Source: Lachnospiraceae bacterium (GTDB taxonomy: Bacteria > Bacillota > Clostridia > Lachnospirales > Lachnospiraceae). From it: a stretch of 11,494 nucleotides of DNA. The translations under genes and the position numbers were made by a program. This document shows positions 2,696 through 11,494 of this stretch, one piece after another (the stretch's first letter is position 1; every line of letters starts with the position of its first letter). The notes below the pieces were generated by a model. It was not told where the DNA came from and searched no databases. It saw nothing but the letters and a program-made list of their open reading frames with translations. The DNA is taken from the NCBI GenBank assembly GCA_021202575.1, contig JAJQCU010000078.1, forward strand, positions 1 to 11,494, given 5' to 3'.

Positions 2696-2738
2696 ATGAT
2701 AAAGGGCGGTTGATGAAGAGCGAGAGCCTTTTGCCCAT

Positions 2739-2796
2739 AAAAAAAGAACTCCTGAATTCATTCCATATCAGAAGGAACGGTAAAGGAGTTCTTTTT
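2739..2796. terminator. Bidirectional terminator between buk and the minus-strand block
   Basis: AAAAAGAACTCCT at 2741-2753 is a perfect inverted repeat of AGGAGTTCTTTTT at 2784-2796. Each arm gives a T-run when read outward, so it can end buk transcription on the plus strand and the lactonase/asrC-remnant transcript on the minus strand. The 30-nt loop contains a possible small inner stem (TTCC at 2761-2764 with GGAA at 2774-2777). Confidence 0.82.
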
Positions 2797-2816
2797 ATTG
2801 TTACCAAATTTCGCGC

Positions 2817-3266
2817 TTAAACATGGGACGTATCTGACGCCGGCCCCGCGTGATGGTGCATACTCGGGGGCTTTACGTTGAAGTTGGAGCGGTATTCATT
2901 TTCATGCCAGAACATATCTTCCGCCACAAGACATTTGGGGTTTAACTCCACGCCGTCCAGAATGATTTCCTTGAATTTCTTGTAGCCGGCCCTGTCGATC
3001 AGATGGCCGCCGTGAAGGTATTCCGGCTTGTAGTCCATTACCCAGGCAGAGAACTTCTGCCAGTTGCCGAGAATGGACAGTACCACATCCTCACTGGCCC
3101 AGTTCAGGAACACCTTGCCGGCCCGGGGAGTCTGCCGCCCGGTTCTGCCGCCCAGTATTACTCTGTAGAAGGGCTCCTCCTGACGGGTCCAGGCGCTTGT
3201 GGGGCAGGCCTTTACGCATTCGCCGCAGCCCACACAGCAGCAGGGATCCTTGTCAAGCGAGGGGAG
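2817..3266 (-). pseudogene. asrC: Anaerobic sulfite reductase subunit C remnant, 5' truncated
   Basis: The frame encodes about the last 145 residues of a siroheme/4Fe-4S sulfite reductase of the AsrC type; such proteins are usually about 300 residues. Visible are a ferredoxin-like cluster motif CVGCGECVKACP, then TSAWTR, a YRVILGGRTG segment, a GGHLIDRAGYKKFKE segment, and an acidic/aromatic tail ending at TAA 2817-2819. The siroheme-binding N-terminal half is missing. No usable start exists: the GTG at 3231-3233 would remove the first cluster cysteine, and there is no Shine-Dalgarno site. Family-like sequence (LDKDPC) can be followed back to about 3258, and the lactonase stop codon is at 3269-3271, so the break is almost exactly at the lactonase end. 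Downstream codons show no stops, so truncation may be recent or the residual frame still conserved. Assignment to AsrC is from recalled family sequence. Confidence 0.75.
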
Positions 3267-3268
3267 TC

Positions 3269-4420
3269 TTACACCTCGTAAAAGGTCACGTTTCCCGGAT
3301 GCTCCTGACCAAAGGTCATGTAAGCAGTCTCCGTCAGCGTCCCGTCATCTGCCACCGCCAGCGTCGTAACGTCCTTTGAGTCCAGATTAGCAACCAGCAG
3401 AAATCTCCCGTCAGGAGAGAGTTTGCAGCCTCTTGGGCCTTTTCCGGAAAGGGCGATCTCCTGGACAAACTCCGGGATACCTGTTTCCTGATCTATCGCA
3501 TATACACACACCATATTGATTCCCCTGTACATGGTATATAGGAAGCGCCCATCGGCACTTACGGTCAGATCAGACTGGGATAAGCTTCTGCCTCCGGCAC
3601 TGGGCGGCGTGACGTCCAATATCTTCACCGTCTCAAGTCCCGCTCCGTAGCTCATGACCGTGAGCCACAGTAGGTACTCGCTGTTAATATAAACGAATGG
3701 CTTTGTCGGATGGAATGCGCTGTAACGGGGGCAGTGTCCGTCCTTTATGCCCTTGCCCCGCTCAAACTGCACGGCGCCGTCAAGAATCAGCTTTTTGCTG
3801 TCTGCGTCAAAATGCATAAGGTATACCTTGTCCTGATTGCGCTCACACACCACAAGGGAGTGACCGTCTGGTGCAAGATTGACAGAGTGAAGGCAGGAGT
3901 AGAACTCCCCCTCCGTCGGGGTTATATATATATCATCAGGGCTCCCCAGGCCGCCGTCGTCATTGATAGGATAGTGTACGATCGTCGTGTCGCTAAAAAT
4001 GCTTTCAAGACTGTACCGCCCGCTCTCTTCCTTAACAATGCGGGTGATGTATGCATTTCCGGAATGGTTGCACAGCAAAAGTCCGTTTCCCGTTCCGTCG
4101 TCCGTTATGTATGCGGGCATCGAGCCGAACGAGCTTTGGCGGCTCACCTCCTCAAGATACCCTGTTTCCGGGTCAACGCGCAGCGAGAAAACACGTCCTC
4201 CTCCGCTCTTTGCCGGCATATCAGGATTATCACTGCGCTCGTCAATGCTGTATATAACGCCGCGCTTCCTGTCGGCGATTATAAGACCTGCCACAATATC
4301 CTCTCTGACTGTTTTGATGTATTTCGTCTCACCGGTGGACGGATCGTATTCATATATTCCGATCCCGCCATCGCCTTTTGTGCTCCAGTTTCCAACATAC
4401 GCATAAGTCTTACCTGACAA
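3269..4420 (-). CDS. Lactonase-family beta-propeller protein (6-phosphogluconolactonase-like)
   Basis: The 383-residue product resembles the seven-bladed propeller lactonase family that includes YbhE/Pgl-type 6-phosphogluconolactonases. It starts with YAYVGNWSTKGDGGIGIYEYD, close to the usual YVGtYt...GI..y opening. Blade-like repeats follow, including LAPDGHSLVVCE, FHPTKPFVYIN, VSADGRFLYTMY and LSPDGRFLLVAN, ending in a conserved HPGNVTF. The likely role is hydrolysis of a sugar lactone in the cytoplasm, but the substrate cannot be read from sequence. The start is TTG at 4420, chosen because GGGGAGG (4435-4429) lies 8 nt upstream and the next residues begin the first blade. No signal peptide is seen. 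It stands alone between two terminators, with the asrC remnant immediately downstream. It has more AT-rich codons and a more AT-rich upstream region than neighbours, hinting at separate origin; this was judged by eye. Confidence 0.85.
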   Translation of the reverse strand: MSGKTYAYVGNWSTKGDGGIGIYEYDPSTGETKYIKTVREDIVAGLIIADRKRGVIYSIDERSDNPDMPAKSGGGRVFSLRVDPETGYLEEVSRQSSFGSMPAYITDDGTGNGLLLCNHSGNAYITRIVKEESGRYSLESIFSDTTIVHYPINDDGGLGSPDDIYITPTEGEFYSCLHSVNLAPDGHSLVVCERNQDKVYLMHFDADSKKLILDGAVQFERGKGIKDGHCPRYSAFHPTKPFVYINSEYLLWLTVMSYGAGLETVKILDVTPPSAGGRSLSQSDLTVSADGRFLYTMYRGINMVCVYAIDQETGIPEFVQEIALSGKGPRGCKLSPDGRFLLVANLDSKDVTTLAVADDGTLTETAYMTFGQEHPGNVTFYEV

Positions 4421-5128: not shown

Positions 5129-6537
5129 TCAGTCTAACGGAAACTTGAAATATTTCTTCGCGTTATTGTAGGAAATACCTCTGACAATCTCCTCCAGCAT
5201 CTCCCAGTCGCAGGGATACTCCCCGTTCTCCACCCAGTTGCCGATCAGGTTGCAGAGGATGCGGCGGAAATATTCATGCCGGGTATAGGATAAGACGCTT
5301 CTGGAGTAGTTCAGCATGCCCACGAAGCCGCTTAAGTTGCCCAGATTGCCAGAGAAATCATCTGGTTCTGCATGCCGACCTTGTGGGCGGTGAACCACCA
5401 GGCGCTGCCCTGCTGAATCTTGGCTACCGCGGTGGAATCCTGGAAGCAGCCCAGAATGGTGCCGATGGCCTCATTGTCGTTGGGGTTCAGGGAATAGATG
5501 ATGGTCCTGGGAAGCTGATCGGTTTTGATCAGGGCGTTCAGGAAATCCGCCATCTGGGCGCTGGGAGCGTAATTGTTGATGCAGTCGTAGCCGGTGTCCG
5601 GGCCGAGGGACTGATACATCAGCTCATTATTATCCCGCTTGCAACCGTAGTGGAGCTGCATGGCCCAATCCAGCCGGTTGTATTCCTTCGCCACGAAAAG
5701 CATGAAAGCGGTCTTGAATTTCAGCTCGCAGGTCTTGCATACAGATTTGCCTGCCAGACGGTTCGCGAAAATTTCCTCGATCTCCTCATCGGAAGCGGGC
5801 TCATACATTACATACTCGAGAGCGTGGTCGGAGACGCAGCAGCCCTGGCTTGCAAAGAATTCCATGCGGTTGACGAGGGCCGCTTTCAGGTCGGCAAAGC
5901 TCTTAATCTCGATGCCGCTGACTTTGGACAGGGTCGCCAGATAGTCCAGGTACTCCGGCTTCTCAATGTTCATGGCCTTGTCCGGTCTCCAGGCGGGCAA
6001 CACCTTCACCTCAAAGCTTTCGTCAGCCTTAATCTTCTGATGCCACTCCAGACTGTCCACCGGGTCATCGGTGGTGCAGATCAGAGTCACGTTGGACTGA
6101 CGGATCAGGTTGCGCACGCTCATGGAGTCCTCCTGGAGCTTCGCGTTGCACAGGTTCCAGACCTCTTCGGCGGTGTTTTTATTTAACACGCCATAATAAC
6201 CGAAATATCTCTGCAGCTCTAAATGAGACCAGTGGAAGAGCGGATTGCCGATGGCCTTGCCCAGGCACTCAGCCCACTTGAAAAACTTCTCCTTGTCGGA
6301 GGAATCGCCGGTGATGTATTTCTCCTCCACGCCGCAGGAGCGCATGAAGCGCCACTTGTAGTGGTCGCCGCCCAGCCAGACCTGGGTGATATTGTCAAAT
6401 TTGCGGTCCTCGGCGATCTCTTTGGGGTTGATATGACAGTGATAATCCAGGATGGGAGTGGTCGCTGCATATTCGTGATACAGTTTCTGGGCCGTTTCTG
6501 TCTCCAGCAGAAAGTTCTCGTCCATAAATTTCTTCAT
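5129..6537 (-). pseudogene. uxaC: Glucuronate isomerase, broken by a one-base frameshift
   Basis: UxaC isomerises glucuronate to fructuronate and galacturonate to tagaturonate. Restoring one base gives 469 residues, essentially the family length. Visible motifs are the metal-site DYHCHINPKEIA at residues 31-42, CTTDDPVDSLEWH, AWRPDKAMNIEK, QLHYGCKRDNNE and GPDTGYDCINNY. The frame then fails: after MQNQMISLA it reads IWAT and stops, while the next frame carries on with [30 protein letters not shown] and the rest of the normal C-terminus to TGA at 5131-5129. One extra T at the TT of 5346-5347 (plus strand) would repair it to SLANLGNLSG. The start is ATG at 6537, with GGAGG 11 nt upstream; the open frame continues upstream to 6678 but that part is unlike UxaC. 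It is divergent from uxaBA. A sequencing indel and a real mutation are both possible. Confidence 0.93.
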
Positions 6538-6651
6538 TTTTTGCCTTACCTCCATAAATACGTATCCATCAAATGCCCACGGGTGCTTCGCGGGAAAGCC
6601 TTCTGGCCGCTTGATGAAATCATGCGGAATCTTTTTTGCACGATTGAATTT

Positions 6652-6680
6652 ATTATAAGTCATAAATCTGTGAAACACAA
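6652..6680 (-). promoter_or_regulatory. Probable promoter of uxaC
   Basis: On the minus strand TTGTGT (6680-6675) is followed after 17 nt by a perfect TATAAT (6657-6652). The -10 is consensus and the -35 matches at only its first three bases. Transcription would begin near 6645, leaving a leader of about 110 nt before the ATG at 6537. A weak -35 fits a regulated promoter, but no activator site is identified. Confidence 0.5.
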
Positions 6681-10017: not shown

Positions 10018-10545
10018 ATGAAAGAAAGACTGATTCAGGCATACGAGGCCATGAAAAGCGGCGATTTCACCTCTGACACGGTGAAAGAAACCGTGGAGGA
10101 GCTGAAGGCGTTTCCGAGAAATGAGCTGGGCGTTTTCGATCTGTCCGCTGTTTCGAACAATGTCTATGAGGCCGGAGGCTATGTGTACCCGGTATACATG
10201 CTTTATGAGACGAAGGCCAACGGCAAAAAGGGCTATATGGATCTGATGGCGCAGCTTCGTGCCCTGTCTCCCCGGGATGGCCGTGACCTGTCTTTAGAGA
10301 ACGCTGCTTACTATCTGGATATGATGGTGAAATGCATCGACGCCATCAGCCCGGAAATCTATGAAATGTACCGGGAGCTGATCGACATGTTCCGCAGCTG
10401 CATGAAGGAGACTCTGATGACGGCGCAGGGGCAGCACGGCGCGGCGGTTCGTTCTGTTGGGGCGTCCATAGAGAGAGCCTGCGGCATGGACATCATTCTG
10501 GCGGAAAAATATATCGACACCGCGAAGGCACTTCAGGAGGCATAA
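10018..10545 (+). CDS. Uncharacterised protein, possibly reduced GH105/GH88-like
   Basis: I do not firmly recognise this 175-residue protein. It is mostly helical in character with no signal peptide or membrane segment. Two stretches loosely resemble unsaturated rhamnogalacturonyl hydrolases (GH105/GH88): GGYVYPVYMLYETK near residue 60, followed by YMDLMAQLRAL, and NAAYYLDMMVKCIDAISPE near 95, followed by a helix similar to the part after the family's WxRGNgW. The usual GH105 protein is about 350 residues, and the middle section with the catalytic Asp would be missing. This likeness is recalled, not computed. The start at 10018 is chosen from GAAAGGA at 10006-10012, 5 nt upstream; the frame is open from 9889 but the extension crosses the hairpin arm. 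It ends one base before the GH28 gene, so the two are surely co-transcribed and probably share a pectin-related job. Confidence 0.7.
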   Translation: MKERLIQAYEAMKSGDFTSDTVKETVEELKAFPRNELGVFDLSAVSNNVYEAGGYVYPVYMLYETKANGKKGYMDLMAQLRALSPRDGRDLSLENAAYYLDMMVKCIDAISPEIYEMYRELIDMFRSCMKETLMTAQGQHGAAVRSVGASIERACGMDIILAEKYIDTAKALQEA

Positions 10546-10546
10546 A

Positions 10547-11494
10547 ATGATGAATATTACGCTGATTATGAGTACAGCCAGAAGTGCTGTGATTGAGCTT
10601 GAGGACGGCGGCCGTTATTTTACAAAAAAACCGTACCGGATCTGTCTGAACGGAAAAGAATATGGCGGGACTGACCGGACGATCACCAATCTTTTTGACT
10701 TAAAGCCGGAGACGCGCTATCTGGCGGAGATTTACGACGGGGAGACGCTGGAGGGAAGTCTGGAATTTACCACGGATTATGAATATGTGACCCTGGATGT
10801 GCGTAAATTCGGCGCAAAGGGCGACGGCGTGTCGGATGATACCCACTTTATTCAGGCGGCCATCATGGCCTGCCCCAAATACAGCAGAGTGCTGATTCCG
10901 GCGGGGACCTACCGCATTACCTCTTTATTTTTAAAGAGCAATCTGCGGCTGGAGCTGGCGGAGGGCGCGGAGCTGAAGGCCTTTACTGACAGGAGTAAAT
11001 TTGTGACCATGCCTCCCAGTATTGAGAGCTATGATGAGACGGACGAGTATTTCCTGGGCACTTGGGAGGGCAATCCGCTGCCCATGTACGCGGCCATCAT
11101 CAGCGGCTATCAGGCCAAGAATGTGATTATTTACGGCGCGGGCACCATCAACGGCAATGCAAGCAAGGAGGACTGGTGGAATAATCCCAAGGTCATGAGG
11201 GGAGCATTCCGTCCCAGGCTGTTCCACATCAACAACTGTAAGGACGTGACTCTGCAAGGCATTACGGTGTGCAACTCCCCGTCCTGGACGCTGCATCCGT
11301 TCTTTTCCAAAAACCTGCGCTTCATCGGCATTACTATCAAAAATCCGTCCGATTCGCCTAACACGGATGGACTGGATCCGGAGTCCTGCAAAAATGTGGA
11401 CATCCTGGGAGTGCGTTTCTCCCTTGTTTTTTTATTTATTGATTTGTAGTCCTGCTAGATCTACATGGGCAGCCGGTTTAAAAAGCCCTCGGAG
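10547..11494 (+). pseudogene. GH28 polygalacturonase-type hydrolase, interrupted by stops and cut by the window edge
   Basis: This family hydrolyses alpha-1,4-galacturonide bonds in pectin, often as an intracellular exo-enzyme when no signal peptide is present, as here. Residues 1-76 look like a small fibronectin-III-like domain. The right-handed beta-helix begins at VRKFGAKGDGVSDDTHFIQAA (from residue 86), with LIPAGTYRITSLFLKSN, GAGTINGNASKEDWW and the catalytic NTDGLDPESC at 272 onwards. Where the family has GDDCIAVKSGK, the sequence reads VFLFIDL, stop, SC, stop (11426-11458). The same frame then resumes with IYMGSRFKKPSE to the window edge, a normal GH28 continuation. AGGAGG at 10535-10540 is 6 nt before ATG 10547; ATG 10550 is also possible. 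The gene is either truly inactivated or carries a base-calling artefact in that short patch. Confidence 0.88.

What the first reader, a model, noticed from the sequence alone, without database searches (positions are those of the whole stretch)
11426..11458. Thirty-base T-rich patch replaces the catalytic GDD region of GH28 with exact length and frame kept
Immediately after VRFSL, GH28 proteins normally read close to GDDCIAVKSGK, then IYMG. Here 11 codons read VFLFIDL-stop-SC-stop, then IYMGSRFKKPSE continues in the same frame. Ile at codon 5 and Ser at codon 9 of the patch still match the expected residues, so this looks like base substitution without any insertion or deletion. Several changed codons differ from the expected ones by a single purine-to-T change (GGT to GTT, TGT to TTT, GTG to TTG, GGC to TGC, AAG to TAG twice). 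The flanks are clean. Such a one-directional burst over a catalytic motif is unusual. The leading explanations are a local base-calling or consensus fault, or a localised replacement/mutation event. The codons used for comparison are inferred, not observed.
Basis: partly seen in the sequence, partly recalled or inferred. Interest (0 to 1): 0.72.

Follow-up and report, generated by a model that had tools for sequence, protein, structure and literature searches.

The report
Miscalled bases at a contig end
A T-rich stretch that seems to destroy the active site of a pectin-cutting enzyme gene is most likely a run of wrongly read bases at the very end of an assembly piece, because its relatives have the normal sequence there.

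Summary
The window is one whole contig of a 427-contig, 84% complete genome, and the patch ends 36 bases before the contig stops. Against the nearest relative found (96.4% identical over the gene, no gaps), 17 of the 33 bases at 11426-11458 differ: 8 G>T, 4 A>T, 3 C>T, 2 C>A. The last 38 bases are identical. All 76 related loci read GDD here, as do 119 of 120 proteins examined, one of them ending right after it. The patch has 15 changes to T in 33 columns; the best in any other alignment with that relative is 7. No other contig matched the rest of the gene or the patch. The pattern, nearly everything to T, dense at first and then fading, resembles a described Illumina base-calling fault. A damaged read at a coverage edge, whose clean tail was too short to rejoin the assembly graph, would explain both the patch and its place. 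Reads were not available, so the artefact is inferred: not a real feature, about 95% sure.

The parts
10547..11494 (+). 5' part of a GH28 (polygalacturonase-type) gene, cut off by the contig end
   Evidence: Pfam PF00295 at 66.7 bits and PF12708 at 41.3 bits; the relative L009 carries the whole gene
11426..11458 (+). T-rich patch in place of the codons for GDDCIAVKSGK; 17 of 33 bases differ from L009, first at 11427, last at 11456
11457..11494 (+). clean tail of 38 bases, identical to L009, ending at the contig end

Best explanation
The patch is a sequencing fault carried into the assembly. Shown: the contig stops 36 bases after the patch; the relatives compared are intact; the changes go almost only to T; no other contig matched the rest of the gene. 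Inferred: at a place with one or very few reads, a read had about 30 cycles in which the T signal swamped the others (worst at the start, then recovering, if it was read on the + strand), its last 38 bases were read well, and the assembler kept it because no other read contradicted it. The clean tail was shorter than the assembler's k-mer, so the path could not rejoin and the contig ended there. The gene in the living cell is most likely an intact GH28 pectinase.
For: Window = whole contig G000:C376, 1-11494. 17 changes: 15 to T, 2 to A, 0 to G or C; the 4 template T's unchanged. Along the + strand the changes fall 8 of 8, 6 of 10, 3 of 12 and 0 of 38 (bins set after seeing the alignment). Outside the patch 1,294 of 5,218 differences in the same comparison go to T (binomial P 7e-8 for 15 or more of 17, taking sites as independent), and 71% are transitions against 3 of 17 in the patch. 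From 10550 up to the patch the gene has 17 differences from L009: 15 silent, 2 in one changed codon, so it was under selection until recently. The nearest protein found, P0001 (96%), has the intact motif together with the window's own residue K265, in which L009 differs. The downstream half of the gene gave no other match in G000, which fits a coverage edge. Printed precedent: G, then A and C, miscalled as T through T accumulation (PMC2745764, passages); bubbles and moving particles that spoil one or several cycles (PMC3163567, passages); read errors giving spurious dead ends in de Bruijn graphs (PMC5563063, passages).
Against: No reads, qualities or coverage were seen. The platform and the assembler of this genome are unknown to me; T accumulation was described for an old chemistry, since replaced. 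A recent two-colour artefact paper reports T>G, the other direction (PMC13218037, abstract). No second T-burst was found at other ends, but only 26 of 202 ends of 101 contigs were covered to within 120 bases, the window's own included, so recurrence was barely tested. The first 21 compared bases of the patch match the relative hardly better than shuffles (P 0.09).
Confidence: 0.86

Rival explanations
1. An assembly step other than a single faulty read, such as gap filling, a chimeric read or a scaffold end patched with wrong bases, made the patch.
For: Contig-end position. The first 21 compared bases match the relative hardly better than shuffles (6 against a mean of 3.7, P 0.09), so that part alone could be foreign sequence.
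Against: Length is kept exactly. Over the whole patch 15 of 32 bases match against a mean of 6.2 in shuffles (P 2e-5), and 9 of the last 11 match (P 1e-4), so at least the later part is the same template. The patch's first 27 bases occur nowhere else in G000 with up to 3 mismatches nor exactly in viral contigs.
Confidence: 0.09
2. A real local mutation burst or short replacement in this strain inactivated a GH28 gene.
For: The patch removes the conserved GDD and adds two stops. Another gene on the contig, the glucuronate isomerase gene, has a one-base gap against all 7 relatives with a match, so decay of the pathway in this strain is conceivable.
Against: 15 of the 17 other differences in the gene are silent. 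I recall no mutagen that turns G, A and C all to T within 30 bases and spares the flanks (not searched for in print). No donor found. It sits at a contig end. The one-base gap is equally what an error-prone contig would show.
Confidence: 0.03
3. Programmed diversification (a diversity-generating retroelement) rewrote the stretch.
For: A short, length-preserving burst of substitutions.
Against: Such elements change template A's (recalled); here 8 G and 5 C changed as well, almost all to one letter, in a motif kept in 76 of 76 related loci.
Confidence: 0.005

Closest known systems
T-accumulation miscalls of the Illumina Genome Analyzer (PMC2745764, passages)
   Same: G called as T first, A and C called as T as well
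   Different: There the errors grow towards the read end over many reads; here a burst of about 30 bases fades out and 38 clean bases follow (if read on the + strand). Platform of this genome unknown
GH28 exo-polygalacturonases (PDB 3jur; NCBIfam polygalacturonase PglA, 440.9 bits, below its cut-off of 600; both run with the relative L009)
   Same: The gene outside the patch; the aligned 3jur and 5olp chains have GDD at this place
   Different: The GDD codons are altered in the window and the second half of the gene is off the contig

Membership tests
Glycoside hydrolase family 28 | Match to the GH28 profile | tested here: met
   PF00295, 66.7 bits against a cut-off of 22.9 for the truncated reading; 148.1 bits for the relative L009
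Glycoside hydrolase family 28 | GDD motif after the NTDG segment (catalytic roles of these motifs recalled) | tested here: not met
   Absent in the window as assembled; present in 76 of 76 related loci. Judged a miscall, not a real loss
Glycoside hydrolase family 28 | Downstream GHG and RIK motifs (recalled) | not testable with these tools
   The contig ends before them, and no other match to the rest of the gene was found in G000
Illumina-type T-biased base-calling fault | Changes go to T from all three other bases, without indels | tested here: met
   15 of 17 to T (8 G, 4 A, 3 C), 2 C>A, no gap
Illumina-type T-biased base-calling fault | Low quality scores in the reads, few reads supporting it | not testable with these tools
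   No reads are held

The most novel reading that the evidence does not exclude
A real, strain-specific burst of substitutions to T, confined to 30 bases, wiped out the catalytic motif of a GH28 gene by an undescribed local mutational process.
Probability: 0.02. Interest if true: 0.5.

Novelty: not a real feature. Interest (0 to 1): 0.06.

Why it matters
It is a clean example of how the last hundred bases of a metagenome contig can fake a loss of catalytic residues. Claims of inactivated enzymes drawn from such genomes should check the distance to the contig end and the read support. It says nothing new about pectin breakdown.

Tried and rejected
Foreign insert or donor: the patch's first 27 bases were searched in G000 with up to 3 mismatches (only itself) and exactly in viral contigs (none); rejected as far as tested. 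Continuation of the gene on another contig: L009:2800-4876 against G000 gave only the window's own end. T- or A-rich stretches near ends: 17 of 223 merged stretches (at least 18 T or A in 30 bases) lie within 200 bases of an end of 101 contigs, the window's own included, that is 17 in 40,400 end bases against 206 in 715,073 others. Composition alone cannot tell natural AT-rich DNA from faults, so ends were compared with G006: 26 of 202 were covered to within 120 bases and 23 over at least 60 of the last 70. No second T-burst was seen, but an end with a burst might also fail to align. Alignments under 88% identity or 200 columns were dropped before these counts. The other end with many differences (L106, 20 of 68) was not studied further; the 33 columns of it printed show mixed changes, as ordinary divergence would. 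A stretch of L115 with 10 changes to A in 33 columns was not examined; it lies inside its contig. Two-colour chemistry as the cause: considered, since all 17 wrong calls are T or A (the 'green-on' bases, recalled), but the one paper looked at (abstract only) reports T>G, so I do not claim it. No structure prediction was run: a fold of the faulty reading would say nothing. Paper searches: (listings).

Full report
What is there. The window is the whole of contig C376 of the genome G000: 2,481,547 bases in 427 contigs, 84% complete. A GH28 gene begins at 10547 and runs off the contig end at 11494. At 11426-11458 it reads VFLFIDL*SC* and then goes on in frame.

Comparison with relatives. Seven of the nine genus genomes searched, G000 included, have a match; the other six align over the window's last 395 bases without the patch. 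L009 is 96.4% identical over 945 bases with no gap. It differs at 34 places, 17 before the patch and 17 in it. The 17 before the patch change one residue (265; K in the window, Q in L009) through two of them; the other 15 are silent. The window's first codon also differs, outside the BLAST alignment. All 76 loci read GDDCI at this place. Of the 120 proteins listed (best 120 of 1,954), 118 have the full motif, one (P0035) ends right after GDD, and one (P0063) reads EMTVLQSRAVR there, which looks like a shifted frame. The nearest, P0001 at 96%, has the full motif and K at the window's residue 265.

Character of the change. 8 G>T, 4 A>T, 3 C>T, 2 C>A; nothing becomes G or C, and the 4 template T's stay. 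Along the + strand the changes fade: 8 of 8, 6 of 10, 3 of 12, then 0 of 38 to the contig end (bins set by eye). For a yardstick, 101 G000 contigs (the window and 100 others of 427) were aligned with 631,917 bases held, nearly all of them from the G006 stretches, plus L009; 32 alignments of at least 88% identity and 200 columns remained, 108,659 columns. The best 33-column stretch for changes to T has 15 here and at most 7 in any other alignment. Outside the patch 1,294 of 5,218 changes go to T and 71% are transitions, against 15 and 3 of 17 in the patch. For changes to A the top is 10, inside L115 (not examined). By total mismatches the patch leads with 17, but other stretches reach 16, 16 and 15, so it is the direction, not the density alone, that stands out. 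The match to the relative over the patch exceeds that of shuffled patches (15 of 32 against a mean of 6.2, P 2e-5), mostly through its last third; the first part alone is not significant (P 0.09).

Why an artefact at a contig end. The rest of the gene, taken from L009, has no other match in G000, the patch's first 27 bases have no second copy there and no exact one in viral contigs. A path that breaks off 38 bases after the last wrong base is what a de Bruijn graph gives when a damaged read is the last support and the clean tail is shorter than k. The value of k and the assembler are inferred, not known. Papers (passages only): PMC2745764 describes G, then A and C, called as T; PMC3163567 describes bubbles and moving particles that spoil one or several cycles; PMC5563063 describes spurious dead ends from read errors. 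PMC4787001 reports a MiSeq bias towards wrong G and T and cites GGG to GGT as the commonest error of another study; the relative has GGGG where the burst begins.

What could not be shown. Reads, qualities, depth, platform and assembler are all unseen. Recurrence at other ends was tested on only 26 of 202 ends, with no second case.

Context. By NCBIfam the window holds an electron-transfer flavoprotein alpha end part (below cut-offs), phosphate butyryltransferase, butyrate kinase, a lactonase-like protein (6-phosphogluconolactonase models, below cut-offs), glucuronate isomerase, tagaturonate reductase and a sugar-acid dehydratase (galactarate dehydratase model, below cut-off), then the GH28 gene. 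This fits a pectin and hexuronate use cluster with an intact GH28 in the cell (inference).

Verdict.

Noticed in passing
5132-6678, - strand, break near 5348: The glucuronate isomerase gene is split over two frames: one reading matches UxaC profile positions 1-397, the next 398-464. The window has a one-base gap there against all 7 relatives with a match. Either another assembly error or a real frameshift.
   Followed up: partly
2700-3350: This stretch has no DNA match in the 8 other genus genomes searched. The - strand ORF 2817-3233 looks like a fragment of a nitrite/sulphite reductase-type protein (NIR_SIR 22.4 bits, below the cut-off of 27; Fer4 22.1 bits, cut-off 21.1), possibly a remnant.
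   Followed up: partly
10018-10542, + strand: A 175-residue ORF between the dehydratase and GH28 genes has no match in NCBIfam or Pfam at E 0.001.
   Followed up: no
L115 (G000:C386), about 3165: A 33-column stretch with 10 changes to A against G006, inside the contig; not examined.
   Followed up: no
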